DNA from: Prostheceraeus crozeri
Taxonomy: Eukaryota > Platyhelminthes > Polycladida > Euryleptidae
Assembly (NCBI GenBank): GCA_907163375.1
Contig: CAJQUW010005784.1
Location: forward strand, 1-64,000
Length of the DNA: 64,000 nt
Reading direction: 5' to 3'
In this document: in pieces, positions 32,631 through 55,559 of the stretch
How positions within the stretch are numbered: the stretch's first letter is position 1
How the letters are laid out: every line of letters starts with the position of its first letter
Made by a program: the position numbers and the translations under genes
Notes under the pieces: generated by a model
Seen by the model: the letters and a program-made list of their open reading frames with translations, nothing else
Told to the model about the DNA's origin: nothing
The model's database searches: none

Positions 32631-32669
32631 CGCCAACTTGATATTATTGAGGAGTACGTGACATTAAAT

Positions 32670-32978
32670 ATGGACATTCCTACTCCTCTTGATCAAGAGT
32701 GGAAGGCGAGAGATGACAAGGATACTCCCTATAGAAAGATTTGGGATGGTAATCACATTTGCCTACCGGTATCACATTGGTGTAGTTATTATAAAAAGGA
32801 TGGAGATCAATCAATACCCATCAGATGTGATGAGCTCGGAGAAGGTACTTGGGATATCCTTTTCAAAGTGAATGGGCTATATTATGGTCGACACAAGGAT
32901 AATAAAATAATCTCTCTCTCTCCATGCATATGGAATCCATCCTATATATTCCAAAACCACCCAACGTGGATGACATAA
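32670..32978 (+). CDS. Unassigned left-most ORF of Polinton 1
   Basis: Starting at the ATG before DIPTPLDQEWKARDD, this frame codes about 102 residues rich in W, Y and D, ending shortly after an SLSPCIWNPSYIF stretch. At its end a different frame (about 32926-33068) continues with a basic tail of the type KRKSEKN...KRKSKKENY, so the original protein may have ended in that tail, with a frame change near 32920. No domain recognised. It sits immediately inside the subterminal repeats, in the same direction as the following RING-like ORF. Confidence 0.4.
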   Translation: MDIPTPLDQEWKARDDKDTPYRKIWDGNHICLPVSHWCSYYKKDGDQSIPIRCDELGEGTWDILFKVNGLYYGRHKDNKIISLSPCIWNPSYIFQNHPTWMT

Positions 32979-33227
32979 TTGATCAAATCCTTAACAGCAG
33001 TGGTACGAAGCGCAAGTCGGAGAAGAATGCTGCATCAAAACGCAAATCAAAGAAGGAGAATTACTAGTCCTTTCCTAACTCTACTCTATGACAATTCGCT
33101 TATGTGCTTTGAGTGTCGTAGACGTGGTCTTATTAGATACATTTTACTTCTTCGTTGCCATCATATCATTTGTGTATTTTGTCGTGAAAAGCATCGATGT
33201 AATTCTTCATTTTGTAATATGTTATAG
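32979..33227 (+). CDS. RING-like zinc-binding ORF
   Basis: The C-terminal half has CFECRRRG, about 13 residues later CHHIICVFC, then C and C (KHRCNSSFC), a spacing close to a C3HC4/C3H2C3 RING finger. RING domains usually recruit ubiquitin-conjugating enzymes; in viruses such proteins often act on host factors. No reliable start codon for the first 50 residues; the N-terminal part is likely out of its true frame, since the adjacent frame carries a lysine-rich tail. A degenerate or partial gene is possible. Confidence 0.5.
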   Translation: MIKSLTAVVRSASRRRMLHQNANQRRRITSPFLTLLYDNSLMCFECRRRGLIRYILLLRCHHIICVFCREKHRCNSSFCNML

Positions 33228-33265
33228 AACGTTTCCTTAGATGTGTAAATTTCCGTTTTAGGCTT

Positions 33266-33807
33266 CTATCATCATTTTTATGGATTGTGAGGGTGAACCT
33301 GTACAAGAGCTCAGTGCTATTGCTATGAACAATTGAACATATCAGATTGTTAGTGTCTATCATCAACATGCCAACTGCAATCCCAATGTTGATCAATGCG
33401 CGAGAAAACACATTCATGGACTTAATCTGAAATATTTGCAAGACTATGGCTTTTCTTGTGAGACTGCTCTTCTTATTGACTTTAAACGATGGTTAGCTGC
33501 TTTCAATGTTATACGCATCTTTTGTAATAATCCTGGTAAGGAGAGGAAAGTATTTCCCGATCTAATCATTGATGATATTTTGCTCCCACCTTGGGATAGT
33601 AGAGTGAATCAACACTACCATGAAGTCACGAAACGTTTTAAGGATTTGTGCGTTCCTATTTTGTCTGTTCGTTGTAGTAGCTACGTTCATAACCAATGCT
33701 TCTTTCCTCCTTACCTCAACACTGCCAAAGTCCTGTATGGTTATCATTGCTCGCTGTATGATAGTTACCACCTGTATCTATTTTATCTCTTTCAAACCAT
33801 TGATTTA
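33266..33807 (+). pseudogene. Exonuclease-like (DEDD/RNase H-fold type) ORF with internal stop
   Basis: The frame begins around FIMDCEGEPVQELSAIA, whose D-x-E resembles motif I of DEDD exonucleases. About 40 residues on it has CARKHIHGLNLKYL, similar to the HGI turn of DnaQ-type proofreading exonucleases, and then a CNNPGKERKVFPDL segment in the place of motif II. A TGA at about 33336 breaks the frame after AIAMNN. If the family assignment is right it would trim 3' ends of nucleic acid, perhaps for recombination or repair, but the later catalytic acids are not clearly identified. It lies between two RING-like ORFs. Confidence 0.4.
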
Positions 33808-33894
33808 TAATGCATGCTTGTTACCGTTATTCAATAAATGTTACTATGAGAAGAGTTGTTTTCATGCAATGGATGGGTTAGATAAAGGGCGATC

Positions 33895-34305
33895 ATGTCT
33901 TTCTCAAACGACTGCGGAACATTACATTTTCATAGGCAAAGTTTAAAAGGAGCTGTTCAAGATTATGTGATAAAATTTCATAAAGATGAGACCGACATCG
34001 AAGCAGTGGTCGATGATGCCAGCACTCTATTTCTAGAGTTAATGAATACATTCTCTGATTGCATTATCATGGCGCGATTAGTTGCGAAAATTAAGTTTAG
34101 TCATTTTGGAAAGCAAGAGGTGGAAAGTCGCTCTTTCCATTTTGCTTCTTACTCAATGGAAGTGGTAGATCACCCCCAAGAATTTTTTAAACGACATATG
34201 ATAAAAATTTCTGAACGTCTTAACGCATTTAACCATCATGGTAGCAGTCTAGTGATTGAAGCGATTTCAGATATTCACATTCAACTTTCCATAAAGAAAA
34301 ATTGA
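33895..34305 (+). CDS. Conserved unknown Polinton protein
   Basis: 136 residues, no known motif. It is clearly related to a minus-strand gene of Polinton 2 (57649-58071): both share an FH-rich start, the QDY(V/I)(I/L)-FH/Q-(K/R)(D/E)ET(D/E)(I/L)EA block, a later F-x-F-x-SY segment and an F-x-(K/T)RH-(M/L)-x-KI block. Conservation between two otherwise diverged elements argues for a real function. The stop overlaps the start region of the next gene. Confidence 0.65.
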   Translation: MSFSNDCGTLHFHRQSLKGAVQDYVIKFHKDETDIEAVVDDASTLFLELMNTFSDCIIMARLVAKIKFSHFGKQEVESRSFHFASYSMEVVDHPQEFFKRHMIKISERLNAFNHHGSSLVIEAISDIHIQLSIKKN

Positions 34306-34307
34306 AA

Positions 34308-34634
34308 ATGCAGTGGTACTTGATTGTAGCACAACTGGTTTTCGAGCTATGTCTGCTCACTCTCGAAGTATATTCCTTCTGTACATGTGTCTATTATTTA
34401 GAAAAGGCTAGCAAATTCATATCTTCAAAAAGACTTGCTATAGACATCATCAGTAACGGTGAAACTATGTGTTGTGATGTATGTAAGCGAAAGGATGGAA
34501 ATGAAAAGCGCATCTTCAAGAGATGTAAGCATGCTTTTTGTCAACGCTGTTTCGTAAGTAATTGCATTCAACTTTGCAAATGTAGCCACTGTGATATTGC
34601 TCATTTCGAGTGTCACTTATGTCGCAATAGTTAG
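34308..34634 (+). CDS. RING-type protein with N-terminal membrane segment
   Basis: The start was set at the first ATG (MQWYLIV). Residues 3-27 or so form a hydrophobic segment suitable as a signal anchor or transmembrane helix. The C-terminal half has paired cysteines CCDVCKRKDG, RCKHAFCQRC, CKCSHC and CHLC, a RING-like zinc-binding pattern. The combination suggests a membrane-anchored ubiquitin ligase-like protein, a role known for some viral RING proteins but not shown here. The gene starts 2 bases after the upstream stop. Confidence 0.55.
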   Translation: MQWYLIVAQLVFELCLLTLEVYSFCTCVYYLEKASKFISSKRLAIDIISNGETMCCDVCKRKDGNEKRIFKRCKHAFCQRCFVSNCIQLCKCSHCDIAHFECHLCRNS

Positions 34635-34700
34635 TACCTATGCAAATGTGGTAAAGATAGATTTTAGCAAAGACTAACACGGAAAATGGCGAAACGTTAA

Positions 34701-35051
34701 ATGACGAAACGTAAAAGTCAAAAGTCTTCAAAGTTTTCTTCAGCCATTCAAGCTCTCCAACGAATGAAAGCAAATCAGCGATACAATGCTATACGACATG
34801 CTAACGATAAATTCATTCGTGAAATTATTTCTCATGTCAGAAAGTTGAGGACGAAGAAATTAGCACCAAAACAACGAAAATTACTTAAGCGATATGCTAC
34901 GAAATTGCGTTTCATCTCCAATCCTGAAGTCACCCTTCAAAGAAAGAGGAAAACTCTAACACAAAAGGGCGGTTTCCTTTCAGCAATACTTCCGATGCTA
35001 GCTCCTGTCGTGGGTAACCTATTGGGTAATATCTTTGACTCTAAGCGTTAA
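34701..35051 (+). CDS. Small basic pX-like minor virion protein
   Basis: 116 residues, strongly basic (SQKSSKFSSAIQALQRMK at the start, KKLAPKQRKLLKRYATKLR in the middle), ending in a hydrophobic glycine-containing segment after QKGGF (FLSAILPMLAPVVGNLLG). This build, a basic domain followed by a membrane-active hydrophobic tail, is typical of a small protein encoded next to the ATPase in Polinton/adintovirus genomes and compared with adenovirus core peptide pX. Probably packaged with DNA or membrane-active at entry; inferred from plan and position. Confidence 0.6.
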   Translation: MTKRKSQKSSKFSSAIQALQRMKANQRYNAIRHANDKFIREIISHVRKLRTKKLAPKQRKLLKRYATKLRFISNPEVTLQRKRKTLTQKGGFLSAILPMLAPVVGNLLGNIFDSKR

Positions 35052-35082
35052 TTATGCAAATGTTGAATCTCAAAGTATTAAA

Positions 35083-35700
35083 ATGGATTTCAGACTTCAA
35101 TGTGGTAAAGTTCTGACTGTATCAGGCCCATCTCATGCAGGTAAAACTGTTTTCACGCTGAATGTATTGGATAAAAGAAGGGAGTTGTTTAAGGAACCTA
35201 TCAATCGAGTGATTTGGTGTTATGGTATTTATCAACCGTCGCTGTTTCAGGAATTGCAAAGTCGCAACTTTATTCGACATGAAGGAATTATTGCAGTGGA
35301 TAAACTTCAGTCTAATGATGTTGTTGTATTGGATGATCTATTAAAAGAAAGTAAGAATTCAAAAGATGTTACAGATATGTTCACTCGCGCAGCACAACAT
35401 AAAAGGTGCTTTATCATCTATATTATACAAAATTTGTTTCCTGATGGAAAAGAAGCTCGTACACGAAACCTGAATACACACTATTATACTATTTTCAAGA
35501 ATCCGCGAGATAAAAGTCAATTTGAAATTTTAGCGCGACAAGTTGCACCCAGAGGATCAAAAGCCTTAATTGAAATTTTTCAAGCAGCTACTGAAAAACC
35601 ATACGGTTACTTATTCATTGACTTTACGCAAGAGTGTCCGGAAGAATTTAGATTTCGAAGTGATATTTTGAAAACTCCCATGATTATCTACAAACTATGA
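35083..35700 (+). CDS. Genome packaging ATPase (FtsK/HerA, A32-like)
   Basis: 205 residues from the ATG at 35083; upstream in-frame codons lack an ATG. The Walker A motif GPSHAGKT lies near residue 16-23, Walker B VVVLDDLL near 90, and the region around IIYIIQNLF is in the place of the arginine/sensor segment. The size suits Polinton packaging ATPases. It pumps the replicated genome into preformed capsids. The stop overlaps the start of the next gene (ATGA), consistent with a tightly packed structural cluster. Confidence 0.92.
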   Translation: MDFRLQCGKVLTVSGPSHAGKTVFTLNVLDKRRELFKEPINRVIWCYGIYQPSLFQELQSRNFIRHEGIIAVDKLQSNDVVVLDDLLKESKNSKDVTDMFTRAAQHKRCFIIYIIQNLFPDGKEARTRNLNTHYYTIFKNPRDKSQFEILARQVAPRGSKALIEIFQAATEKPYGYLFIDFTQECPEEFRFRSDILKTPMIIYKL

Positions 35701-36389
35701 GTTCTTATTCTCACATGATTGTTATTCCTCAGGATGAATATGTACAATTGACTGCCATGCAGCAAGTAAAGCAACCTCTTGCAAATCAAATGTATAGGAA
35801 AGAAATAGATTATCAGCAAAATGTTCACATCAAAGATCCACATCGTGCTGTATTATTACAATCGGAAACTGTTGAGCAATTGAAAAACTTGAAGAATAAG
35901 ATGCGTGACTCTGTATCGACTGCTACACCTTTAGCATCTCGCGCACATGCCATATCTCTTTTCAACAGTATTGAACCCCATCTCAATGTAAATGATAGAG
36001 TAGAAATCATTACAGATGAAAATAAAGTGATTGATGCTTCACGTTATGAAGACTTGATTCAGTATGCGACACGTAGAAAGCGCCGTCAGGGCTATGTTCC
36101 ACCTGGTTGGTCATACTTTCTTAAACTATTGAAAAAGCATAATGTGCCAAAATTTGCTTTGAATAATGAGACATTGAAAGAACTTGATTCAACAGTGGCT
36201 ACTGCTCCAATGCTTCAGACGATGAAAATGCCAACAAATTGGTTAAAGACGTCACCTGCTACATCCCCTCCCACACTCACTAAGCAAACAAGAGGAAGAA
36301 CTCGACGTAGATCTACATCACCACTAAAACTAGTAAAAGGAAAACGTAAAACAGCTCCTCCCAGGAAATACATGTTCTCAGACTATTAA
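35697..36389 (+). CDS. Unassigned late-type protein with basic C-terminal tail
   Basis: 230 residues. The first half is mixed helical (DPHRAVLLQSETVEQLKNL); the centre has ASRYEDLIQYATRRKRRQG followed by YVPPGWSYFLKLLKKHNVP; the tail is rich in K, R, T and P. Proteins with this plan are common between the ATPase and integrase in adintovirus-like elements. A DNA-binding virion component is plausible but unproven. Its start overlaps the ATPase stop by four bases. Confidence 0.6.
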   Translation: MSSYSHMIVIPQDEYVQLTAMQQVKQPLANQMYRKEIDYQQNVHIKDPHRAVLLQSETVEQLKNLKNKMRDSVSTATPLASRAHAISLFNSIEPHLNVNDRVEIITDENKVIDASRYEDLIQYATRRKRRQGYVPPGWSYFLKLLKKHNVPKFALNNETLKELDSTVATAPMLQTMKMPTNWLKTSPATSPPTLTKQTRGRTRRRSTSPLKLVKGKRKTAPPRKYMFSDY

Positions 36390-36390
36390 T

Positions 36391-36606
36391 ATGAAGCAGA
36401 TGTGTTGCTTGCCATGTAATGAGCCGCCAGAGGTGAATGTCGTTGTCACTTGCACTTGCTGCGCCAGCTCTCATAATGAAACCCCTAAGCAATGTGAACA
36501 CGATCGCAAAACCGCTAAAGCTAAATGCTGCAGTTGTTGTAAATGTAGAAAGGCAAGAAAACAAAAAGATGAGAAGGAGGAAAAAGAGTCAGTCGTCATC
36601 GACTGA
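36391..36606 (+). CDS. Cysteine-rich 71-residue ORF overlapping the integrase start
   Basis: The ATG lies two bases after the preceding stop, the same spacing as other starts in the cluster. The product has 12 cysteines in pairs (MCCLPC, CTCC, KCCSCCKC) and then a charged KARKQKDEKEEKE tail. It overlaps the integrase frame by about 38 bases beyond the likely integrase start at 36569. It could be a real zinc-binding microprotein, an upstream leader for the integrase, or a chance frame. Confidence 0.35.
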   Translation: MKQMCCLPCNEPPEVNVVVTCTCCASSHNETPKQCEHDRKTAKAKCCSCCKCRKARKQKDEKEEKESVVID

Positions 36607-37678
36607 ACGTTTGAAGTCAATCTATTATGATGTAAAACATCCGGCAGGATTTGCATCTATCAAGAAATTATCAAAAGCGAGTGGTCTTCCACAATCACAA
36701 GTGAAACGATGGTTAAAGGGTCAGGCTACCTATACACTCCACAAACAAGCGAAGAAGAAGTACCGCACCCGCCATTATATTGTTCATGACATCGATGAAC
36801 AGTGGCAAGCAGATTTGTGTGATGTCGCCTCCATTTCAAAACATAACTCGGGCAATAATTTTATTTTAACCGTCATTGATATTTTCTCGCGTTATGCGTG
36901 GGCTCAACCTTTAAAAACTAAAGAAGGGAAAGGAGTAGCAAAAGCATTCCAAACAATTTTTCGAGAAGGTCGGATTCCAAAAAGAATTCAGAGTGATCAA
37001 GGAAAAGAGTTTGAAAATCAGCATGTGAGAAGATTATTTGAGAGGCATGACATTGAGTTGTTTAGTGTAAAGAGTGCTTATAAAGCTGCACTCGTTGAAC
37101 GTTTTAATCGCACATTAAAAAATCGCTTGTGGCGACATTTTACTGCCAACTTGACACAAAATTGGACAAAGGTTCTACAAGATACACTCCATGCCTACAG
37201 TCACTCTATCCATTGTTCTATTGGACTCAGACCAGTAGATGTAAATGCTGACAATGTAGATAAAGTGCGCGAATCATTCCAACGTAAACGCACTCATGTG
37301 AAAAGTGATATGAAAATTGGTGATAAAGTTCGTATCTCAAAAGTGAAAAGTGTTTTTGCTAAAGGGTACCTTCCGAATTGGACAGAGGAGGTATTTACAG
37401 TATCAAGGATTAATAAAAAAAACTCTCCGACCACCTACAAGTTGAAAGATTACGATAATGAAGAAATTGAGGGTAGCTTTTACCGCGATGAGATTGAGGT
37501 AATCACTGAAAGTGAAACATATTTGGTAGAGAAAATCATTCGATGTAAAAAACGGCAAGGTGAAGAATGGTGTCTTGTTAAATGGACTGGTTATCCTTCA
37601 AGTATGAACTCTTGGATGCGTCGTGCCGACATCTTTCATCTAAGTGATCGACAGTGGTTCATGCAAAGTTGTAACTAA
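36569..37678 (+). CDS. Retroviral-type (DDE) integrase with chromodomain
   Basis: The start was chosen at the methionine of MRRRKKSQSSS; an earlier in-frame ATG at 36437 would add 44 residues without clear homology. A short N-terminal helix-turn region (IKKLSKASGLPQSQVKRWL) precedes the rve core: WQADLCDV (first D), SRYAWAQPLK, IQSDQGKEFEN (second D), and ALVERFNRTLKNRLW (catalytic E). A C-terminal chromodomain follows: YLVEKIIRCKKRQGEEWCLVKW. Catalyses strand transfer of the linear element into host DNA, giving the 6-bp duplication seen at its ends. The chromodomain probably steers insertion to chromatin. The frame is uninterrupted. Confidence 0.93.
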   Translation: MRRRKKSQSSSTERLKSIYYDVKHPAGFASIKKLSKASGLPQSQVKRWLKGQATYTLHKQAKKKYRTRHYIVHDIDEQWQADLCDVASISKHNSGNNFILTVIDIFSRYAWAQPLKTKEGKGVAKAFQTIFREGRIPKRIQSDQGKEFENQHVRRLFERHDIELFSVKSAYKAALVERFNRTLKNRLWRHFTANLTQNWTKVLQDTLHAYSHSIHCSIGLRPVDVNADNVDKVRESFQRKRTHVKSDMKIGDKVRISKVKSVFAKGYLPNWTEEVFTVSRINKKNSPTTYKLKDYDNEEIEGSFYRDEIEVITESETYLVEKIIRCKKRQGEEWCLVKWTGYPSSMNSWMRRADIFHLSDRQWFMQSCN

Positions 37679-37698
37679 CAATGTTTAGGGTTTGAGCT

Positions 37699-38154
37699 AT
37701 GAATCCAACTGCCTCATTTTATTCACGACCCTCTTATGTAAGTGGTGGAGGACAAATTTACATCGGCGCTCGCCGCCAACGTGGAGGTAGCATACTTGGT
37801 GCACTGAAATCTGTTGTAGCACCTCTCATATCCAATGTCGGTAGATCTTTAAAACGAAATGTTTTAAGTAATGCCGTTGGTTTTGCTGGTGATGTTGCTA
37901 GTGATCTTTCCAGAGGTAGAAGTTTTAAGAGCAGTTTGTTGAATCGTGGGAAGGAACGCGGTTTAAAAACATTGAAGCAGACCTTTGCTGGTGTTACTCA
38001 AGGAAAGAAATCACCTAAACGAATGAATAAAGGAAGGAGGAAACATCGCGGAGCTGGTAAGGTGCGATCTTCAGTCAAAAGGCATTCACGCAAACGTCGC
38101 AGAGGCTCTAATCATTCATCAGGCGCTAAACGACGACGCTGCTGTAACTTCTAA
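37699..38154 (+). CDS. Basic, glycine-rich minor virion protein (pVI-like, tentative)
   Basis: 151 residues. The N-terminus has a GGGQIYIGARRQRGGS segment followed by an amphipathic, alanine/valine-rich helix (LGALKSVVAPLISNVG); the C-terminal third is almost entirely K, R, S and G. The arrangement resembles adenovirus protein VI-like and core proteins found just ahead of the capsid gene in adintovirus-like elements. Probably internal virion protein, possibly membrane-active and a protease substrate. Only three bases separate it from the capsid gene start. Confidence 0.55.
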   Translation: MNPTASFYSRPSYVSGGGQIYIGARRQRGGSILGALKSVVAPLISNVGRSLKRNVLSNAVGFAGDVASDLSRGRSFKSSLLNRGKERGLKTLKQTFAGVTQGKKSPKRMNKGRRKHRGAGKVRSSVKRHSRKRRRGSNHSSGAKRRRCCNF

Positions 38155-38156
38155 TC

Positions 38157-39434
38157 ATGGAGTGTAAAACTTCCGGTTTTTGTTTGTTTGATCAACAAGC
38201 CATACAGACAGATATTCTTAGTTCAAGTATTGTAGATTATCATCCTCGAACAGCTGAGAATGCTGGCCCCATTGAATTTGTTATTCCTGGTGATAGTGAT
38301 GACTACATAGATTTGAGTTATGCGATGGTTGATTTAAGGTTTAGAATTCAGCAAGCAGATGGAACTGCTATTGACGATACACATAAAGTTGGACTGAACA
38401 ATTTACCATTGACTACATTACTTCGCGATGCTTCTCTAACGATTGGAGAGCAACAGGTGGAAGGTGGTCAAAGCGATTATCCCTATAAATCATATTTCAA
38501 TCATGTATCACAGTTTCATCCAGCAGCACAAAAAAGTCATATGGAAGCCATGGGATGGTATAGAGATGAAGCAGGAAAATTTGATGTTGAAACAAACAGT
38601 GGCTATGTAAAGCGATCTGCTATGATTAAAGATAGTAAAGTATGTCAGCTATATGGTCCGCTGAATTTAGACTTCTTTAGACAGTCAAAGTTTTTACTCT
38701 GTAATACCAGCATGCGACTCAAGCTGACATTGAATAAGCCTGAATTTGCGCTGAATGCATTTACTAAAGTTGACAATTTTAGAATTCATGTGGAAGATAT
38801 TGCACTTTACATTCGTCGAGTAGTACCGAATCCAAGTGTCATTAGAGGACATGCTGAAGGTCTTAACCGCCAAAATGCCATTTACCCCATTCAGCATACA
38901 AAGCTTGTCACCTTTACAATTCCAAAAGATCAAAAGAGTTTCATGAAAGATGGCCTCTTTCCATCGGAAGCACCGAAGCTCCTCATGGTAGCAATGGTTG
39001 AAAATGACGCATTTAATGGTAATATAAAGAAGAATCCTTTCAATTTTAAACACAATCAGTTAAGTGAAATTGCTTTACGTGTAAATGGTGTGAGTCATCC
39101 TGGTCCACCCTACAAACCAGATTTTGCTGCGGATCAATTTATGCGCAGTTATGTTGATTTTATGGATGTCTTTGGCTTTTACAATACGGATGACACTAAC
39201 GGACTCACTATGAAAGAGTTTAAGAGTGGATATACTATTTATGCATTTGATTTGACGGCTGACAGCGATATTAGTGCACCCTATCGTCAAGCGAACGTGC
39301 CTCATAATATTCGTTTGGATTTGACGTTCAAAAGAACACTACCTGAGACGATCAATGTATTAATTTATGCAGTCTTCGATTCAAATATTGAAATTACAAA
39401 GTATCGTGACGTGATTCTTCAGTATAATCGTTAA
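38157..39434 (+). CDS. Major capsid protein (double jelly-roll, Polinton type)
   Basis: 425 residues, uninterrupted. Features typical of the family: an N-terminal stretch around IEFVIPGDSDDYIDLSY, conserved NLPLTTLLRDASLTIGEQQV, a long middle beta-rich region, and the C-terminal YTIYAFDLTADSDISA and INVLIYAVFDSNIEITKYRDV. These are the signatures by which Polinton capsid proteins were linked to double-jelly-roll virus capsids. It forms the pseudo-hexameric capsomers. Stop and next start overlap as TAATG. Confidence 0.9.
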   Translation: MECKTSGFCLFDQQAIQTDILSSSIVDYHPRTAENAGPIEFVIPGDSDDYIDLSYAMVDLRFRIQQADGTAIDDTHKVGLNNLPLTTLLRDASLTIGEQQVEGGQSDYPYKSYFNHVSQFHPAAQKSHMEAMGWYRDEAGKFDVETNSGYVKRSAMIKDSKVCQLYGPLNLDFFRQSKFLLCNTSMRLKLTLNKPEFALNAFTKVDNFRIHVEDIALYIRRVVPNPSVIRGHAEGLNRQNAIYPIQHTKLVTFTIPKDQKSFMKDGLFPSEAPKLLMVAMVENDAFNGNIKKNPFNFKHNQLSEIALRVNGVSHPGPPYKPDFAADQFMRSYVDFMDVFGFYNTDDTNGLTMKEFKSGYTIYAFDLTADSDISAPYRQANVPHNIRLDLTFKRTLPETINVLIYAVFDSNIEITKYRDVILQYNR

Positions 39435-39878
39435 TGAGTTGGTTGACTGCTGACGATATTGAGACTAAAGTGCAGCGTAATGCAGACGAAGCGACGTTGA
39501 AAGCTTTCGATAATGTCTATTCACTCGATACCTTACCACCTGCAGTAAATCACTATCCCATCTTTATTGTGCTAAACACTCATTCGCAGAATTTAGGCGG
39601 TGAGCATTGGAAAGCGATCTTTATTGGAGAAGACCGACTCTCTTGCTCAACCTCCAAATATACCAACACAGCAGTGGTTGAGAAAACATACGCGTCAATA
39701 TCAGCGAAATGATCGCATACTACAACATCCACTTTCATCAACGTGTGGTGCTTTTGTACTGTACTTCATCTTAAAACGTTTACATGTATCTCGATTTGTA
39801 TCTGTTATTCAAAACTTTTCATGTAATCCATCCTCTAATGAAAAAATGATTTGTAAGTTCTATCATGATTTGAAATAA
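39434..39878 (+). pseudogene. Adenain-like cysteine protease, frame-broken
   Basis: The first frame (39434-39712) has the N-terminal family pattern and the catalytic histidine in GGEHWKAIFIGED. The remainder of the enzyme (PNIPTQQWLRKH, then STCGAFVLYF with the catalytic cysteine) is in the next frame, ending at 39878. The short segment expected between them, normally containing the acidic catalytic residue and a FFDS-like turn, is mostly missing, so a small deletion with frame change near 39640 is the simplest explanation. In intact elements this enzyme matures capsid proteins. An AATAAA overlaps the end of the gene. Confidence 0.85.
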
Positions 39879-39904
39879 AAACATCATGTTGGAAAAATTG
39901 TTTT

Positions 39905-40450
39905 TTATTTTACAATCCGCTGGGTACGTACATACTCGATGAGATAGTCTAGGATCACATTTGCTTGTACATGAGATTTTAGTCCAGTAATGATCACTTT
40001 ACTATTATGAAAGATTGCCACATGCACAGGTAACCAACAACTAATGAGAGCTGCAGGAAAAAGTTCGGGTTCATAACACAAATTGTAACTGCTGGTACGA
40101 ATCTTCAAAAATGATACACTTTCACTCAATTGAGTAGAGATCACCATATTGTCCACAGTCAGATTCGACATCACACACCTCTTCCTCTTCCATATCCGAC
40201 GTAGTAGTCTTTGTAGCTCTAAGCGCATTGACTGCGCCGATGAATGAGAAAGGGCGCCGAGAATCTGTACAGTCCCATTTGGGAAGAGTTGAAGATTCCG
40301 TGAATTGTTCATCTTCACCACTAACATTTGAGGTCGGCCCGGGTAATACTTGCTGTTTGGAAGGTGTTGGTGTAATGTTGTGAGATCGATTTTGGTGTAG
40401 AGTCTGAATCGACGGAGAATGTTGACGATGGTGTAGCGATGGCGCTTCAT
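39905..40450 (-). CDS. TATA-binding-protein-like protein (TBP fold)
   Basis: From the ATG at 40450 (MKRHRYTIVN) the product is 181 residues, the size of a TBP core. It shows both TBP repeats. Repeat 1: KIDLTTLHQHLPNSKYYPG, then LFPNGTVQILGALS. Repeat 2: NLCYEPELFPAALI, then IFHNSKVIITGLKS, and a final helix. These match the family's YEPELFPG / IF-x-SGK-x-x-x-TGAK signatures. Three of the four DNA-intercalating phenylalanine positions appear kept (LFP of repeat 1, ELFP and IF of repeat 2); the first is replaced by proline. It would act in the nucleus at viral promoters. It overlaps the preceding PC4-like frame by about 330 bases in another frame. An AATAAA overlaps its stop codon. Confidence 0.78.
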   Translation of the reverse strand: MKRHRYTIVNILRRFRLYTKIDLTTLHQHLPNSKYYPGRPQMLVVKMNNSRNLQLFPNGTVQILGALSHSSAQSMRLELQRLLRRIWKRKRCVMSNLTVDNMVISTQLSESVSFLKIRTSSYNLCYEPELFPAALISCWLPVHVAIFHNSKVIITGLKSHVQANVILDYLIEYVRTQRIVK

Positions 40451-40772
40451 GATGAAAGAATGAGTAAATTGAGCGATGTACCTTCCTTTTATACTTTTCC
40501 CAACTACCTTGATGAAATGTGAAGTTAGTATGGAGTTGGGAATGATAGAGTTGAATTCGCCGATTGTTGACGCGCAACCAGATGCGATTTCCAATACGTG
40601 AATGTCTTTTCATATAGAAGTATTTCAAATCCTTAATGATATGATGTAGAGATTGAAAATGACGATAAGATAAAGCAAACTCTCTTCTCACATTTCCAGT
40701 TGAATCTTTGAAATAGACGTTTCGATCATGATCCGTTTCAATACGTTGTAGGGAATCTAATTTCCAACTCAT
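40122..40772 (-). CDS. PC4-like protein, copy 2 (tentative)
   Basis: The N-terminal 110 residues are clearly paralogous to the next gene: W-x-LDSLQ-x-I near the start, a NVYFKDSTGNVRREFALS segment, a helix with IIKDLKYF, a WLRVNN-x-R segment and WEKYKRKVHRSIYSF. A beta strand with GNV, a polar turn, an I/A-L-S strand and then a helix recall the PC4/p15 single-stranded-DNA-binding transcription coactivator fold. The C-terminal half is a low-complexity read-through of the TBP-like gene in another frame, so the true end of this protein is uncertain. Confidence 0.5.
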   Translation of the reverse strand: MSWKLDSLQRIETDHDRNVYFKDSTGNVRREFALSYRHFQSLHHIIKDLKYFYMKRHSRIGNRIWLRVNNRRIQLYHSQLHTNFTFHQGSWEKYKRKVHRSIYSFFHHEAPSLHHRQHSPSIQTLHQNRSHNITPTPSKQQVLPGPTSNVSGEDEQFTESSTLPKWDCTDSRRPFSFIGAVNALRATKTTTSDMEEEEVCDVESDCGQYGDLYSIE

Positions 40773-40794
40773 GGTGCGTGGTAGTCATGTCTGA

Positions 40795-41163
40795 TTAAGA
40801 TTTGCATAGTAGGGCGATGAACTCACGACGAATAAATGTCATGATGGAGCGATGTATGTATCTTCTATACTTCTCCCAATTGTATTTGCGAAATGAGAAA
40901 CAGTTTGCGGAATGAGAATGGCAGATTTGAATCTCATTTCTGTAATGTTGAAGCCAAACTTGATCACCCAAGGAGATGAATCTTAATGTTTCAAAATATT
41001 CCAAATCCCTCATGATATCATTGAGGTTGACAAATTGTCGCCATGTTAATGTAATACCTCTTGATGTATGACCATGAGAATTTTTGAAATGTACGTTTCC
41101 ATTACGATCAACTCTGATATATTGTAGAGAGTCCAAAATCCAAGTCTTCATGATGTTATGCAA
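40795..41163 (-). CDS. PC4-like protein, copy 1 (tentative)
   Basis: 122 residues, or 118 from the internal methionine at 41151 (MKTWILDSLQ), which aligns with the start of copy 2. Shared features: GNVHFKNSHGHTSRGITLT, a helix ending MRDLEYFE, VWLQHYRNEIQICHSH, and WEKYRRYIHRSIMTF. PC4-like proteins bind single-stranded DNA and assist transcription initiation, and homologues occur in some large DNA viruses and Polintons; here the call rests on pattern only. The gene lies 22 bases upstream of copy 2 and diverges from the penton-like gene with 23 bases between start codons. Confidence 0.5.
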   Translation of the reverse strand: MHNIMKTWILDSLQYIRVDRNGNVHFKNSHGHTSRGITLTWRQFVNLNDIMRDLEYFETLRFISLGDQVWLQHYRNEIQICHSHSANCFSFRKYNWEKYRRYIHRSIMTFIRREFIALLCKS

Positions 41164-41186
41164 AGCCGCAGATCAGCAATATAAAA

Positions 41187-42584
41187 ATGTCGTTTTATCA
41201 TATTTTGCTTAGCAATGCGGCTACAAAGAGATTTGCTAGTAATCGAGCCGCACTCTTTTCTACTCCCATTGATCATGCACAACAGCTAAATGGAAAGTGG
41301 GAAGTGGGTGTCACTCAACTTGTTTATAGCAACTGTGTCTATACTTTTGATCATGAGGTGATGACTATTAATATGAGACGCACAGCTGCTTACCAATGTG
41401 AAAAGGGCTGCCGAGTATACATTCCACGGTGGCCAAAGAAAGATCTCTTATCATGTAAAAAGTTTATATATGATTTCTTGAATTAAGCGTGTAAACATAT
41501 TGTCCAATTTACTCTGCACAATGATGATCATAATTATGTACATCATGTAGTTGAGAAAGATTGGATTGTTGGTTTAAGTCCAAGTTTAAGAAATGATTTA
41601 GGTTACCTCGCTAGCGCCTTAACAAGCTATGATAATTATAACGTTAATTACCACCCAAGTGGTCATAAACAGTTAATATATCGAGAGGAAGCTTATTATG
41701 TCGATCTTATTCCAAGAAATGAGAAGACGTTGGTGAAGAAGATTGTGATTAAGCCAAGAAAGACAAACATGACTCCTGGAACATTATTGAAGAAATTTAA
41801 TTATCTCCTTCGAGTTGATGGTAAACAAGTGGCAACATTGACTTATATCAAATCATCTAAACATATTGCAATAAGTAAATTAAATGATGATGATCTAGTA
41901 TTAGTTTGTTCAAAAGATTTTCATCAGTTCTTACGACATCGTTCTGCAGCTGTTCATGGAAAATCTGATATGCAACATTTACCATGTGAAAGGTCAAATC
42001 AATTTGATACAGAATGGACCGTATCTTTATACAGAAAGTGTGTAGAGCCTTTAGGTGGTATCTTACATGAAACAAGAGTGTTGATGCCTCGCATTATTAC
42101 TTCAGTTAAATTGGTTGTAGATTATTTAAATGAAGTGATTAATGAGCAACATATTTCATTTTCTGAAAAAGAAGGTACTTTGTCTCTCACTATAAGTGGA
42201 AAAGGTATTGAACTAATTATGGATAAAACTCTAATGGACATTTTGGGTTTTGATCAAAATATCTTTAAAAGTGGTACTGTAACCAAAGCTAGCGCAGACA
42301 TGTCGCTATCGCGTCGTATTAACTATTTTCAGATATATTCCAATATTGGTGAAGATGTACGTGTGGGAGATGTTGAAGCTCCATTGCTAGCAATGATACC
42401 ATACCAGCCAAAAAGCTGCAGTATTTTATCTAAGCATACTTTCAAGAAAGTGCATTATACAAAGCTGAAATCAAACTACATCCCACAAATTGATATTGCC
42501 ATTTATGACGATGCTGGTGCGTTGATTCCTTTTCATAAAGATGCTGTGACAAGTATCACACTCCATATCCGAATGAAGAGTTAA
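41187..42584 (+). pseudogene. Penton-like minor capsid protein with one internal stop
   Basis: The N-terminus has the family start SFYHILLSNAATKRFASN and GKWEVGVTQLVYSN. A TAA at 41484-41486 interrupts the frame, but the same frame is open again without gaps to 42584, ending in the typical beta-rich C-terminus (NYFQIYSNIGEDVRVGDVE, then IDIAIYDDAGALIPF). The upstream and downstream parts share the phase, so this is a single nonsense change rather than a frameshift. In Polintons this protein closes the capsid vertices. TATAAAA directly precedes the start codon. Confidence 0.85.
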
Positions 42585-42623
42585 TGCAAACGTATGCTAA
42601 TATATTTTTCCAATGTGAATAAT

Positions 42624-44139
42624 ATGGAAAGTGAAAATAAGGACTCGTTTCTAATCTACTTGCCCAGTAATGCTTCGATGAATAAATTTCCCAAAAATAA
42701 ACCATCAGACTATCGAGTAGAATTAAATCGCCTACTACATTTAGAAGATGAATGGGAGGTTGGCGTTTCTAGTATTTGCTATGATAGCAATATTCAGAAT
42801 GTGAATGATTTGGAAGAAATGATATTGACTCCTCGCACCCATGATGGAATAACGATGAATAATGCATTCCAGTTCCCATACAATTTAACGTCAGATGGAA
42901 AGTGGAACTATGAATGGATTCAGATAAAATCAGATTATTATGGTCCATTTGGGAATGAGAAAATTATTAAGGCATTCAACAGTGGTAATACTTCCATCAT
43001 GAAGAATAAGGATCAGAAAGTTTATGAGTTTACTATCTATCATTGGAGTGGGAGACAGTTCCTTCGCTTTCATTCTTTTACTAAAGGTCTTACACTGAGG
43101 TTGGATAATGAATTCTATCCACATCTCGGTTTTGGCCATGGACTACATCTAACGTCAATTGCTACTGCAAATGTTAAAAAGTTTATTCAAATCGAATCAA
43201 CAAATTTCATTATAAATTTAAAATATTTAATGAAGATGTTGTAGAATGCGAAGAACGCATCATTTTGAAAAAGCGTAGTGTTCAACCTTTATCACTTATT
43301 GAGTTAGTAAAACGATGGAATGAGAGTGTGGGTAAGAAGTATGGAGAGAAAATTATGGCGGACAAAAATAGGTTGGTTATTCAGAAATATAATGACAAAC
43401 TTACAGTTTATTTCTCTCCAACCTTGCGTCATTTTGTAAGACATCCAACCCCTATTATTGGAAGCGGTCTGGTGTATGCTTCTCATGAATATCACACTAA
43501 AGCTGATTCAGTTAATGATGAATGGTGGGTGGACATCTATGGTGATAGCATCAAGAAAATTTACCAGTATTATGAAGAATCTAAAGTTGCTATCAATACA
43601 ATGCCGCGTCTATATCATACAGTTGAAAGCTTCATTCATGTAGTAAATCCTTATATACAACAGAAGTTGAAGCATGTGATGAAAAGTAAATATGATGTAA
43701 AGACACACCACATTTCGTTTCAATTGAAAATCAACGCGTTGTTCTGAAACTGGGTGATGACATTCAATGTCAATTGAGTAAAAATTTGAAAAAACTCTTT
43801 GGTTTTTCAATGCTACAAACTGTGTTTACTGCTGCGCATACGATTGGTATAGAAACACCAATGACACTTGATAAACATGAACAGCACCTTTACATTCAAA
43901 ATGATTTGATTCTACCTATTTCTGTTGGTGAGAAAAAAGAATACACATACGTGATTTCATTCATGATAAAGTTGATAAAAAAAATAAAATAATGAGAATA
44001 AAGTGATAAAGATAGTGTTTGAATCTATTTTCTATCATCCCGTCGTCAAACAAACTATACCCTCTATTGCTATCAAAATTACCAATGGTTTACAAGAGTG
44101 CATCCATGTGAAAGATACTAAATCCCTCGTAACTTAAGT
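42624..44139 (+). pseudogene. Second penton-like gene, frameshifted
   Basis: Paralogous to the preceding gene: DSFLIYLPSNASMNKFPKN and EWEVGVSSICYD at the start. The frame changes near 43210, again near 43725, and once more near 43985; the last piece (44011-44139) carries the expected C-terminal IPSIAIKITNG. At least three indels therefore separate the pieces. A duplicated penton-like gene is unusual enough to note; this copy is not translatable as one protein. Low identity to the neighbouring copy suggests an old duplication. Confidence 0.8.
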
Positions 44140-44334
44140 GTTTCGGAAAACAAAGTGAAGTCATTGTGATATGTTTATTGAAATAAAAATGTGTATGAAA
44201 AATCTTTTCACAGATATAGGGGGAATGGGCTGACTGTAGGCATATATTCACAAGGAAGAAACGATCTAATGCGATACATAAAACAGCAATGTTTATCTAC
44301 AGAAATCAACATGAAAATACTAAGTTAAGGATGA
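44140..44334. terminator. Convergent 3' region with poly(A) signal
   Basis: AATAAA at about 44182 follows the second penton-like gene. The PolB gene ends on the other strand at 44335, so two transcription units converge here. Confidence 0.5.
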
Positions 44335-47300
44335 TTATGCTAAGACGTCTCCTGAATGTGGTAGTGTGAGTTTAATTCTTTTGGGTGGTGGTATGTTTGT
44401 GTCAGGATGTCCATGTGGAAGAGATATGTTATGTTCTAACCAGCACCTCTTATCCTCGCATGCTGAAAGCGCCCGTTTCCTAAAAGTATGAGTTTTGATC
44501 TCATGCGACTTAGATTTTAAGATTGTCATATTGACAAACGTTATATTTTTATTTCTATAGGCTTTCCTGAAATTTTTATGTTTCATGTTAGAGACCAATG
44601 ATCTTGATATGCCTTTAGCACGCTTAATACTATCGTCGCTATCCCTTAATTTCATACTGTACATTTTTGGTCGGAGGAGAATCATTTCATCTATTTCCTT
44701 CCCTGCTGTCTCATCCTTAAAGCAACCAAGTTTTGCCTTATTTTTGATGGAGTAGAGTGGGTGATCAGTAGGATAATTTGATGTATCAAAATATCTTTCT
44801 AAAGATTTTCCTACTTCATTGAAATTTAAATATTTTTGAGTGGTAATACCTAAGAAGAAACTATCTGTATCACCACCCAACAAACGAACCTCTTTTACGA
44901 GAGGACATGGTTTTAGTATTTTATAAAAGAGTTGGTACATTTCAAGCTTAGAGTAATCTAGTACAGCTTGGCCAATATAGATGGGCTTGCACAACTCAAC
45001 TTCAGATTTTATCATTTTAACACCTACAAGGTCCTCATCGATAATGTCTCTATCGATGAATAGAGGTGATGAGACCAATTTCTTAAATTTTGTAACATCA
45101 TTGACTAGTTTATAGTTTACACGTTTTCTAATATCCTCCATCGTCTTACCAAATAGACTATTATTCTTATACTTATAAAAATCCTTTTCAAAATTATTTT
45201 GGGCTAGTGCACGTTTCTGGCTGTTGCTATCAATATATGGTTTGAGGAAGGCTTTCTGTCTAAATTTAATAATGCGGTGAACTCTTTTTAAAATCATGCC
45301 CATTTCTAAATAACATTTTAAGATGCTAAAGTGGACTAGATAGTTTTCCTTATCATATTGGGTGAGTAAAAGTTTGCGGCAAGGCTTATAGTCGGGTTGA
45401 CCGCATGATTCTAAATCTTTATGAAATTGTTTCATAAAGTCGGAAAACATATCTTTGGTAACTTCACCTGATTCGGGTGCGAGTGGAAAATCTACGGTTT
45501 TATGTTTAATATTAATTGGATCGATTAGATCTATCTCAAAATAATATCCCCAATCACCTTCATCTGGAATTGCTAGTATGTTAGAAGGGTTGGAGAGATG
45601 CTGAATTTCACTATCATCTAACCAGCTAAACTCAGAGAGAGGGAGTAGTTTGGATAGTGAACTACCGTACAAATTATTTTGGTCATAATACTTAAGATGA
45701 GTCTGATCATCGCCTACTAATTTTGATTTTAACCTATGTTTATTTACAAATGTGAGACCACCGCGAATTCCTCGCTCAAATAAATTATACATCTCTGGAT
45801 CTTGTAAGAGATGAATGGTCTCAACAGTCATTTTAAAAGCAGACTTAAATGACATGGCTGGCAGACTGACAAAGTGGACGGGATCTAACTTATCTTCTTC
45901 TAATGCCACCCGTCGAAATTCCTGAAATACATCAGCCAGCAAAAATACATCTAACTTAAGATAGGCAATCATATATTCGCCAAATGTATGGCAGTCAAAT
46001 TTTATCCATGAATCTTGTGCATGATCATAATCTTCGGTCTTACATTCTGCGCCGGTCAAATCATTTTTAAATTTATCTATGGGCGGAAGAGAAGTCTCGC
46101 CGAGTTTACTAATCGCATCAAAATATGCATATGGAAAGACTCCTTTCCGTGTGATGACTTCATCGATTAGATTTGGATATTGTTTCTTAAGATTTTGTGT
46201 TAGTGGAAGAGACTTTAGATTTTGTACGAGAGAGGCCAGTGATGCAGTCATAAATTGGTAGCAATCTAAAAATTTTATATCAAAATAGACCGTCTTATTT
46301 TCTTTAGTTTTATCGACAGGCACTTTTGCTGTCATGGCCATAAACTTCTCTCTCGTTTGTGCTATTACATCAAGCTTCCACTCTTTCATTTGACCTAAAC
46401 CTCCTTTTATTATCATATGGCTGTCGTAGCCCTTGAAATTATGGAAAATGACGGGTAATGTACGCCGTTTCATCCTAAGTGAAAAATTGCATTTTGAACA
46501 TAGTGCGTTTCTAAATTTACCAGTGATGTGATCATGGTCGCGCACTTTCTTAACTTTATCATCATCAAATGTTTTCCTACATTTGAGGCAAACGTTGCAA
46601 CTATCAAATTTTGCTTGATCATCTGCTGTCATATGCAATGATCTGCGATACAGTTCACCATCATACTTTTGTTGAAATTTTACAGCCTGTTTGAGGAATT
46701 GTAGGAATTGGTAAATACAATCCTCACCTTGCCAGACGTGCATTTTATTTTTTCTATTTTGGAAATGGTCATGCCATACTTCATAGCAGGAAATGGCTGC
46801 TGCTCGATGAGTGTTATCATCGATATAGCATTCGATGTCAGCATAGATGACACGAAGAGGACTTAGTTCATCACCATTCTCTCTATATGAAAACTCCTTA
46901 TCTTTGGGCATGCGCTCCACTTGTAGTTTACCTCGCTTACACCATTCGTAATGAGTTTCAAATTTGTTTTTACTCCTGAAGTTCCGAATGCAACTGTCAC
47001 AGTAATAAATCTCTGATGAGCTAGAATTTCTTAGGTGGTGGTATAAGCGAGAAATTTTGGGAATACCGCAGTAGTGCCATTCCTCACTATCATCCTGTCT
47101 TACTAATAAAAGGTTGACAACGTGGGCATAACAACTCGAACGCGAGTTGTAGCGGACACCCTTCAATCCCTTTTCCCAAACATGGAGAACTATTTTGATG
47201 TTGTTCAATTTTTCAAATTTTTCTATATCTTTAATTTTCATATCGTCACTATTACAGTCATCAAACTTTAATTCATTCTCCCACTGTTGATACTTACTCT

Positions 47301-48323
47301 CACGGTATCGCCTATTCTGTACATTATTATAGTGGAGAATGGAGAGGACGGCATACTTAAAACATTGCGATTCGCAATCTATAGAAATGACTGCTGCTTT
47401 ATTTCTTAAATTTTTCGGAAGTTTAAAGGAGCCTCGTCCAGAGTAGTTCTCTAATAAAGTGATTTTAATGATGGCGGTCTGAATACCATCAAAAACGAGA
47501 CCACTATCACGCTCGTTAAATTTATCTATGTTTAATTTTAACCCTTGGATATGAAAATTTATCCAAGACTCGCAGTCTACAACTTCGGTTGCAGGAGAGG
47601 AGGGTATGTGAAACTCCAACCTCTCTACCATTTGACCAGTATGGTGGTCGATTTTTACATATTTTATTTGAGATAGATGAGCGCCTTCATTCTAAAATTG
47701 ACTAAATTGTTGAAGAGCGCACCAATCAAAGATGAATTTTGATGAAACCATTCTTCAAAGTCAGTAATGGTTTCTGAGGATTCCATCTGGTAGTTCCTCA
47801 CTAAATTATTTATCGACACTTCAGAGAGTCGGATAGAGGAGGTGCTGTTAGTATAACTATCGTCACTGTGTGTATGTCGAAGTCTATGTGAAGATAGTTC
47901 AAAATGTGACTCAAAAGACTGAATGCATAAATCGCAAGAAAAGGAGACATCGTTAACAGAATCATCCCCACCTTCGGAGATTGATGCTGACTTAGGTCTA
48001 CAAAAACCTCGCTTGATGTGCCGGACGAGATCACGCTTCCTCGTGAAGATGTGCCCACAGTCAGCACATTCCCGATCGTTGCATTCCCGCGACAATGTTG
48101 ACATGGACTCGCTCGAGATGGGACTGGTATCAACTGAAAGAGAAATCATTCTATCATCTCTGTTCAAGTCTCAGTGTATTGTTACAACCTACCTTGACTC
48201 AACAACTCTAAACTTTCCTCGAGAAGGGAGGGCGTTGGTGATGAAGTTGATGCCTGAAATTGAGGAAGATGCTATTAGCCACACGTTTGAGGGAGATGAC
48301 TGATGAATTCCTTAACTTACCAT
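44335..48323 (-). CDS. Protein-primed DNA polymerase B with N-terminal zinc fingers (element 1)
   Basis: The catalytic frame 44335-47631 (1098 codons) is uninterrupted: zinc finger YYCDSCIRNF, ExoI VIYADIECYI, zinc-binding C-x2-C with VRDHDHITGKFRNALCSKC, ExoII VIFHNFKGYDSH, ExoIII region YLKLDVFLLADVF, motif A YDQNNLYG, motif B KNNSLFGKTMEDI, motif C LLGGDTDSFFLG and a later RPKMYSMK. Upstream, the exon from 48133 encodes two C2H2/C2HC fingers (CADCGHIF..., FSCDLCIQSF...) and ends at 47664 in a stop; the continuing frame is one step away, so an indel near 47660 separates fingers from polymerase. Further exons: 48193-48253, and an ATG followed at once by GTAAGT at 48321-48323. Replicates the element using a protein primer. 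Confidence 0.9.
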
Positions 48324-48597
48324 TTCAACGAAATCAAGTTTAAGGTTGATACTTCAACAAGATAGAGACTTCACTCAAATTTGGAATTCACGAGAGAGCA
48401 GTTCACTCGTACGCCTCAAATATAGAATTCGCTAGAGAACACTTTACTTACACGTCTCAAAGACAGCGTGAAATGACACGGATGTCAGTTTACATATATA
48501 CTTTCATATTCATCATTCATTGGCTGTTGATTTTTATTGGTTGCTTGTTTATACTTAAGAATTAGGAAACATTTCAAAGTCATTATTCACAGTCAAC
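48324..48597. promoter_or_regulatory. Divergent promoter region between PolB and the rightward ORF
   Basis: On the minus strand GTATATATGT (about 48492-48501) is a TATA box for PolB, with a GTAAGT donor about 45 bases downstream (48450). Two CCAAT motifs on the minus strand lie at about 48519-48542. A TTTATAC near 48548 could serve the rightward gene. The leader holds two imperfect copies of a GAATTCNNNNTTTGAG-type sequence. Confidence 0.5.
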
Positions 48598-50969: not shown

Positions 50970-50971
50970 TT

Positions 50972-55520: not shown

Positions 55521-55559
55521 GGAGATAGACGGGTTTTTAGTGTTTGAATGATGGGTATT

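What the first reader, a model, noticed from the sequence alone, without database searches (positions are those of the whole stretch)
39905..40450. A Polinton-encoded TBP-like protein
The minus-strand frame carries both imperfect repeats of a TATA-binding protein at normal TBP-core length, including YEPELFPAAL and a KVIITGLKS segment, and keeps three of four intercalating phenylalanine positions. The rest of the element is a Polinton, and TBP is not one of its standard genes. It suggests that the element could supply its own promoter-recognition factor and so control which of its promoters are used.
Basis: partly seen in the sequence, partly recalled or inferred. Interest (0 to 1): 0.88.

Follow-up and report, generated by a model that had tools for sequence, protein, structure and literature searches.

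The report
Polinton-encoded TATA-binding protein, half rebuilt
A virus-like jumping element carries its own version of the protein that marks where genes start; one half still looks like the cell's version and the other half has been rebuilt, which suggests that the element reads its own start signals.

Summary
Observation confirmed. 39905-40450(-) encodes a 181-aa TBP with both repeats (Pfam TBP E=1.2e-20; hhalign to yeast TBP probability 98.4%; AlphaFold2 mean pLDDT 95.6 with a TBP-like order of strands and helices). It lies inside a Polinton with intact ends, 31360-52848: AGTAGT/ACTACT ends and a 6-bp target duplication. It belongs to a large uncharacterised family: 998 proteins at E<=1e-6; 140 sequences examined.

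The family is asymmetric. The C-terminal lobe keeps most DNA-contact and the TFIIB-contact residues. In the N-terminal lobe the minor-groove surface carries new, nearly invariant residues: F99->P, A101->M, L114->Q, V122->Q, T124->L (yeast numbering). The gene overlaps a tandem beta4-alpha ("PC4-like") gene; the overlap is open for 108 codons and looks dual-coding.

Best reading: a viral TBP working with host Pol II/TFIIB at the element's own promoters. A candidate motif, ATGCAAA, precedes 6 of 16 gene starts, while the TBP gene has an ordinary TATAAAAG. Promoter use is inferred, not shown. No report of a Polinton TBP appeared in the searches; the founding Polinton paper was not held.

The parts
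39905..40450 (-). TBP gene, 181 aa
40199..40429 (-). N lobe (residues 8-84): DNA-contact positions replaced family-wide (P40, M42, Q54, Q62, L64); N10 and F56 kept
39926..40162 (-). C lobe (residues 97-175): N101, V103, F131, F147, T155 and the TFIIB contacts E127, E129, L130 kept
40122..40772 (-). second tandem PC4-like ORF (216 aa); core 40449-40772, then a Ser/Thr/Pro/Gln-rich tail with an acidic end that overlaps TBP codons 1-109
40795..41151 (-). first tandem PC4-like ORF (118 aa); predicted topology four strands and helix, twice
40486..40493 (-). TATAAAAG, 43 nt before the TBP ATG
34640..34646 (+). ATGCAAA, -61 from ORF start 34701
35054..35060 (+). ATGCAAA, -29 from the ATPase ATG at 35083
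37661..37667 (+). ATGCAAA, -38 from ORF start 37699
40801..40807 (-). ATGCAAA, -35 from the second PC4-like ORF
41158..41164 (+). ATGCAAA, -29 from ORF start 41187
42584..42590 (+). ATGCAAA, -10 from ORF start 42594
31360..52848 (.). whole Polinton (21,489 bp), ends AGTAGT and ACTACT, flanked by the 6-bp duplication CACAGC (31354-31359 and 52849-52854)
31360..32059 (+). left terminal inverted repeat, about 700 bp
52149..52848 (-). right terminal inverted repeat, about 700 bp
36437..37678 (+). rve integrase with chromodomain
35035..35700 (+). putative packaging ATPase; likely ATG at 35083
   Evidence: ORF; no Pfam match; weak RecA P-loop resemblance; name from recall
38157..39434 (+). putative major capsid protein
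   Evidence: ORF; no family match; name from recall
44335..47631 (-). PolB with exonuclease motifs, motifs A, B, C and an endonuclease VII-like insert
   Evidence: motif names from recall

Best explanation
This is a Polinton-encoded TATA-binding protein, from a large family of probably mobile-element or viral TBPs, that acts as a virus-specific promoter-recognition factor with the host's RNA polymerase II machinery. Shown: TBP sequence and predicted fold, location inside a Polinton with intact ends, and a family-wide split between a largely conserved C lobe and a rebuilt N lobe. Supported but indirect: linkage to an upstream PC4-like gene in relatives. Inferred: the C lobe still bends DNA at the TATA-like 5' half and recruits host TFIIB. 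The new N-lobe surface (Pro, Met, Gln, Gln, Leu) changes which 3' half-site is accepted, so the protein selects the element's promoters over host TATA boxes. The gene's own TATAAAAG box would let host TBP switch it on first. The other genes, of which 6 of 16 tested starts carry ATGCAAA just upstream, would follow once viral TBP is made. The step from TBP to ATGCAAA is the weakest.
For: TBP identity; model pLDDT 95.6, pTM 0.86. In 140 family members: F99->P in 134 of 137 with a residue there, A101->M 140/140, L114->Q 136/140, V122->Q 140/140, T124->L/M/F 140/140. C-lobe N159 and V161 are kept in 140/140, F190 in 139/140, F207 in 140/140, T215 in 138/140. TFIIB contact E188 is kept in 140/140 and E186 in 136/140 (D in 4). 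The TFIIA contact K138 is acidic (E or D) in 121/140. The pattern holds in 34 representatives under 60% identical, and the N lobe is as conserved as the C lobe (mean entropy 1.74 against 1.71 bits), so it is not decaying. Linkage: the nearest TBP relative (81%) and a 78% PC4-like relative both have a longest contig of 1771 nt. Of 26 homologues with N-terminal extensions, 17 have the best hidden-frame match to the end of the PC4-like gene 54-56 residues before the GRP motif; by arithmetic it is 55 in the window. Motif: ATGCAAA is the top 7-mer upstream of 16 ORF starts (6 of 16); the null maximum over all 7-mers reached 6 in 1 of 2000 draws and 2 of 1000, and 6 of its 7 copies in the element are there.
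Against: There is no binding, expression or structural-complex evidence. The motif weakens when debatable starts are dropped: without 35083, 8 of 1000 null draws reach it; without 35083 and 42594, 71 of 1000 (70-base windows; 401 and 235 of 1000 with 50 and 100 bases). Ten of the 16 starts lack it, including MCP, integrase and PolB, and ATGCAAA is no commoner in the element than in its flanks. Five of the six sites lie 10-38 nt before an ATG and would leave a very short leader. ATGCAAA(T) is also the octamer bound by animal POU factors (recalled). The 140 members are among the best-scoring of 998 hits, with unknown hosts and almost no context; DNA scans of viral and genome collections found no second element, so that the family as a whole is viral is inferred. 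L205->A and V213->I show that the C lobe has changed too.
Confidence: 0.6

Rival explanations
1. Host shut-off or competitor: the protein keeps the TFIIB-binding face but no longer binds TATA normally, so it sequesters TFIIB or blocks host preinitiation complexes rather than starting element transcription.
For: TFIIB contacts kept while most of the N-lobe DNA surface and the TFIIA contact K138 are replaced or reversed.
Against: Three intercalating Phe and most C-lobe DNA contacts are near-invariant, and N-lobe replacements are fixed rather than drifting, which implies that DNA binding is still selected.
Confidence: 0.17
2. A non-transcriptional DNA-bending or single-strand-binding protein, for replication or packaging.
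For: Giardia TBP, lacking three of four Phe, prefers ssDNA (PMC12209930, abstract and passages). The neighbouring genes have a PC4-like predicted topology, a fold that binds ssDNA (recalled).
Against: TFIIB-contact residues are conserved: E188 in 140/140, E186 in 136/140. Only one of four Phe is lost.
Confidence: 0.1
3. The ATGCAAA sites are octamer elements read by a host POU factor; the viral TBP reads plain TATA or no defined motif. (This rivals only the motif step.)
For: Four of the seven element copies are full ATGCAAAT octamers, the POU consensus (recalled).
Against: Three of the six upstream copies are ATGCAAAG or ATGCAAAC, and all four TATGCAAA copies in the element lie upstream of gene starts.
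Confidence: 0.35
4. A captured host TBP that is now a decaying passenger or pseudogene.
For: At least one other gene of the element, the protease-like one, is split between frames.
Against: Open frame; a family with 16 invariant columns in 62 sequences; split from five cellular TBPs with 100% SH-aLRT (quick tree, long branches).
Confidence: 0.02

Closest known systems
Cellular TBP (yeast, microsporidian, archaeal)
   Same: Two-repeat core of normal length; most C-lobe DNA contacts, three intercalating Phe and TFIIB contacts.
   Different: N-lobe DNA face replaced; TFIIA contact K138 acidic in 121 of 140; 22% identity to yeast in the profile alignment; very long branch.
KSHV ORF24 viral TBP mimic (PMC12529657; abstract and passages read)
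   Same: Virus-encoded TBP fold that keeps Phe and swaps a hydrophobic for a more polar DNA face, reading a non-TATA motif (TATTWAA) with host Pol II.
   Different: Reverse asymmetry: ORF24 keeps more of the N lobe (4 of 8 core residues against 2 of 8) and lacks the acidic TFIIB contacts; here the C lobe and TFIIB contacts are kept. ORF24 has further domains; this is a bare 181-aa core.
Mirusvirus and giant-virus TBPs (PMC10132985, PMC12085832; passages read)
   Same: TBP encoded by a eukaryotic DNA virus.
   Different: Much larger genomes (a mirusvirus contig of 431.5 kb, against 21.5 kb here). Their sequences were not compared here.
Giardia TBP (PMC12209930; abstract and passages read)
   Same: TBP that has lost intercalating Phe and DNA-contact residues.
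   Different: Giardia lost three of four Phe; this family lost one and keeps most of the C lobe.
PC4/Sub1 (upstream neighbour)
   Same: Predicted topology of the 118-aa protein is four strands then helix, twice, the first helix being broken in two, like a PC4 dimer in one chain (topology of PC4 recalled).
   Different: No PC4 match in Pfam and hhalign probability 2.1% to human PC4.

Membership tests
TBP family (PF00352) | Sequence match above the curated cut-off, both repeats | tested here: met
   73.6 bits against 22.9, two stretches; 62 of 62 aligned members match at E<=0.01
TBP family (PF00352) | Two-repeat saddle fold | tested here: met
   Model pLDDT 95.6; order strand-helix-four strands-long helix, twice, the first helix of repeat 2 being very short (TBP order recalled). 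No superposition: fold search was busy
TBP family (PF00352) | Four intercalating Phe | tested here: not met
   Three of four; F99 is Pro in 134 of 137
TBP family (PF00352) | TATA-box and TFIIB binding | not testable with these tools
   TFIIB-contact residues kept; no assay
NCBIfam TATA-box-binding protein (PRK00394 models) | Score above the curated cut-off | tested here: not met
   68.4 bits against 181, best of ten TBP models
Polinton/Maverick | Terminal inverted repeats with 6-bp target duplication | tested here: met
   AGTAGT/ACTACT ends, CACAGC both sides; same end motif as vertebrate Mavericks (PMC8097293, passage)
Polinton/Maverick | rve integrase | tested here: met
   PF00665 6.6e-11 plus chromodomain
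Polinton/Maverick | Protein-primed PolB | tested here: met
   Exo and polymerase motifs present in order; but no Pfam, NCBIfam or PDB PolB match; motif meaning recalled, priming not tested
Polinton/Maverick | Packaging ATPase, capsid, protease | tested here: inconclusive
   Candidate ORFs named from recall; no family match
PC4 (upstream genes) | Sequence profile match | tested here: not met
PC4 (upstream genes) | Fold | tested here: inconclusive
   Matching predicted topology, pLDDT 85.2; structure search never ran
Herpesvirus ORF24-type TBP mimic | Homology beyond the TBP fold | not tested
   No herpesvirus sequence was fetched or typed

The most novel reading that the evidence does not exclude
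One stretch of DNA encodes, in two frames, the rebuilt DNA-reading lobe of a viral TBP and the activator-like acidic tail of a tandem PC4-like protein. Together they form a minimal Polinton-specific preinitiation module that reads a TATA derivative (TATGCAAA) while host TBP, through an ordinary TATA box in front of the TBP gene, starts the cascade.
Probability: 0.2. Interest if true: 0.92.

Novelty: new variant of a known kind. Interest (0 to 1): 0.77.

Why it matters
Polintons are generally pictured as borrowing host transcription (recalled). A dedicated TBP would give them their own promoter choice and a built-in early-to-late switch in a 21-kb element. A TBP that rebuilt mainly one half of its saddle is also a natural experiment on how the two lobes divide TATA reading, TFIIA and TFIIB work, and it mirrors the herpesvirus solution. 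The family is large (998 hits at E<=1e-6), so it can be tested.

Tried and rejected
Looked for a second element by DNA: viral contigs with TBP, TBP alignment, capsid, PolB, PolB alignment and PC4-like alignment, genome contigs with the TBP alignment and the phage collection with TBP and PolB: none (the tools say that records near the window's genome may be left out). The window's second, partial Polinton is cut by the window's end before the place where a TBP gene would lie; TBP found no match in either flank, so it neither supports nor opposes. Whole-genome search did not complete. Rejected that the PC4-like frame is the only real one: TBP-frame conservation is family-wide. Rejected plain chance for the overlap: 108 open codons in 0 and 1 of 20000 synonymous recodings with element codon usage, 2e-4 with the gene's own usage, 0.0035 with the usage of codons 1-109, 0 of 20000 on permuting codons over the whole gene, 0.0023 permuting within codons 1-110. 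Considered reading the 'SIK' seen upstream of the TBP frame in many extensions as a conserved TATAAA box: not separable from conservation of the PC4-like 'YK', so only noted. Rfam found nothing at gathering thresholds.

Full report
1. Is it there? Yes. The minus-strand frame 39905-40450 is open from ATG to stop, 181 aa. Pfam TBP matches at E=1.2e-20 in two stretches. PDB TBPs match at E=1.1e-12 with the single sequence and 1e-24 with the family profile. The profile aligns with yeast TBP over 166 columns, probability 98.4%, 22% identity. AlphaFold2 on the 62-row alignment gives mean pLDDT 95.6 and pTM 0.86, with the order strand, helix, four strands, long helix, twice; the first helix of repeat 2 is too short to be listed. 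I could not superpose it on solved TBPs because the fold search was busy every time.

2. Where does it sit? The element runs from 31360 to 52848 (21,489 bp), with ends AGTAGT and ACTACT and the same six bases, CACAGC, on both sides. AGT repeated twice is the commonest end of vertebrate Mavericks (PMC8097293, passage read). Inside are an rve integrase with chromodomain, a PolB with three exonuclease motifs and motifs A, B and C (motif names recalled; no Pfam, NCBIfam or PDB polymerase match) and ORFs that I call ATPase, capsid and protease from recall. It is a Polinton whose ends are intact. The protease-like gene lies in two overlapping frames. The host is not identified.

3. A family. Sixty-one clusters match the protein at E<=1e-3 and 998 proteins match the profile at E<=1e-6, of which the best 120 were listed. 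With the window that makes 140 sequences examined. Four of the listed ones carry a source's own name, TBP; the rest have none. They separate from five cellular TBPs with 100% SH-aLRT on a very long branch (quick tree, and the program warns that long branches meet). IMG/VR and GTDB scans with the family alignment found none.

4. The asymmetry. I mapped positions to yeast TBP; contact roles are recalled from the TBP literature. N lobe: F99->P (134 of 137 with a residue there), A101->M (140/140), L114->Q (136/140), V122->Q (140/140), T124->L, M or F (140/140), V71 M in 102 of 128 with a residue there (L in the window, V kept in 7). N69 is kept in 116 of 117 with a residue there, and F116 in 140/140. 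C lobe: N159 and V161 140/140, F190 139/140, F207 140/140, T215 138/140; changed are L205 (A in 116) and V213 (I in 117). TFIIB contacts: E186 136/140 (D in 4), E188 140/140, L189 127/140. TFIIA contact K138 is E in 111 and D in 10 (K kept in 7). In 34 representatives under 60% identical the picture is the same, and mean column entropy is 1.74 bits in the N lobe and 1.71 in the C lobe. So the N lobe has been rebuilt and then held, not lost.

5. Neighbours. Upstream on the same strand are two related ORFs, 40795-41151 and 40449-40772. Five relatives of the first were found; one bears a name, 'hypothetical protein'. Sequence does not make them PC4: no PC4 match in Pfam, hhalign probability 2.1%, nothing in PDB better than E=0.091. 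The AlphaFold2 model of the first (pLDDT 85.2) has four strands and a helix, twice, the first helix broken in two, the topology of a PC4 dimer in one chain (recalled). Linkage to TBP is seen in two ways. The nearest TBP relative and a 78% PC4-like relative both have a longest contig of 1771 nt (same length, so I infer the same contig). And 26 of 140 TBP homologues carry more than 50 predicted residues before GRP (3 of 140, without a GRP-like motif, were dropped). In 17 of 26 the best place for a hidden-frame match to the end of the PC4-like gene is 54-56 residues before GRP (55 in the window, by arithmetic), and in 9 of 26 the match beats shuffles at P<0.05, eight of them at that place; in the other 17 of 26 it does not. 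These 26 are not independent.

6. Overlap. The second PC4-like ORF runs on through TBP codons 1-109, open for 108 codons. Random synonymous recoding gives this in 0 and 1 of 20000 trials with element codon usage, 2e-4 with the gene's own usage and 0.0035 with the usage of codons 1-109; permuting codons over the whole gene gives 0 of 20000, and within codons 1-110 0.0023. Third-position GC is 0.55 in codons 1-109 against 0.32 in 110-181 and 0.28-0.36 in seven other ORFs, while first-position GC is 0.47 in both parts and second-position GC 0.37 and 0.33. The third bases there look like first codon bases (+8.9 nats) and the sign flips after codon 109 (-7.4). Of six other ORFs long enough, one reaches something similar: the first 109 codons of the integrase ORF (+6.8), which overlap another ORF, 36391-36606; PolB's best window gives +2.0. 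The tail has 14 Ser, 11 Thr, 8 Pro and 7 Gln, and 10 acidic and no Lys/Arg among its last 26 residues. I read this as dual coding, probable but untested in a relative.

7. Promoters. TATAAAAG stands 43 nt before the TBP ATG. Of the 18 starts checked (two of them outside the element), three others have a TATA-like hexamer within 150 bases: TATAAAA at -7 of 41187, CATAAA at -66 of 41730 and -60 of 42594. ATGCAAA is the commonest 7-mer in the 70 bases before 16 ORF starts (6 of 16), and the best of all 7-mers reached 6 in 1 of 2000 random draws and 2 of 1000. Six of its seven copies in the element are there, and all four TATGCAAA. In the element as a whole ATGCAAA is not enriched over the flanks (3.3 against 4.5 per 10 kb). 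I set the start 35083 (ATG) in place of the listed TTG 35035, after having seen the motif; without it 8 of 1000 null draws reach the observed value, and without 42594 as well 71 of 1000, or 401 and 235 with 50- and 100-base windows. The motif is suggestive.

8. How it may work. Host TBP reads TATAAAAG and the viral TBP is made. Its C lobe seats on the 5' half of a TATA-like site and binds host TFIIB; its N lobe, with two glutamines where TBP has Leu and Val, accepts a different 3' half (orientation of the lobes on TATA recalled). TATGCAAA keeps TAT and changes the rest, which would fit. Nothing after 'the protein is a TBP with kept TFIIB contacts' is shown.

9. What is known. KSHV ORF24 is the closest in behaviour: a TBP mimic with kept Phe, a polar DNA face, a TATTWAA motif, more of the N lobe than the C lobe kept and no acidic TFIIB contacts (PMC12529657, abstract and passages). 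The Polinton protein is its mirror image. Mirusviruses (59% of genomes, PMC10132985, passages) and a haptophyte giant virus (PMC12085832, passages) encode TBPs; a structure survey reports TBPs in three known plus four further families of large dsDNA viruses, and its text has no word beginning 'polinto' or 'adintovir' (PMC11410667, passages). In a green alga, TBP genes occur in elements of putative mirusvirus origin (PMC10675990, passages). Searches for Polinton or Maverick with TBP, TATA, TATA-binding protein or TFIID listed no title or abstract reporting a Polinton TBP. I read passages of 5 of the 25 papers, and searched the texts of four Polinton or related papers for TATA and TBP without a hit (PMC11071296, PMC11071308, PMC8097293, PMC4642659). 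The founding Polinton paper and the adintovirus paper were not held, so an earlier mention there cannot be excluded.

10. Verdict. A real, conserved, Polinton-borne TBP with a half-rebuilt DNA surface: a new variant of a known kind (virus-encoded TBP).

Noticed in passing
40122-40450: The second PC4-like frame stays open over TBP codons 1-109 with a third-base pattern typical of dual coding.
   Followed up: partly
36391-36606 against 36437-36763: The start of the integrase ORF overlaps a Cys-rich 71-aa ORF and shows the same third-base pattern (+6.8 nats): a second possible overlap, or a wrong integrase start.
   Followed up: no
59423-62863: A second, partial Polinton in inverse orientation: its PolB is 60% identical to the first and lacks motif C; sequence 97% like the first element's right end lies inverted at 55406-56367.
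   Followed up: partly
39434-39878: The protease-like gene (name from recall) lies in two overlapping frames, so this copy may be inactive there.
   Followed up: no
32979-33227 and 34302-34634: Two short ORFs near the left end have RING-like Cys/His spacing (seen by eye; no Pfam match for the second; the first was not scanned).
   Followed up: no
44335-47631: PolB carries an endonuclease VII-like segment (PF02945, 5e-7, residues 346-384), and a C2H2 zinc-finger ORF lies just upstream (47664-48167).
   Followed up: no
P0146 (unnamed contig): In one relative the stop between the two PC4-like genes is absent, so they read as one frame.
   Followed up: no
9383-9901: A tandem repeat whose unit reads as an open frame of about 45 residues.
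   Followed up: no
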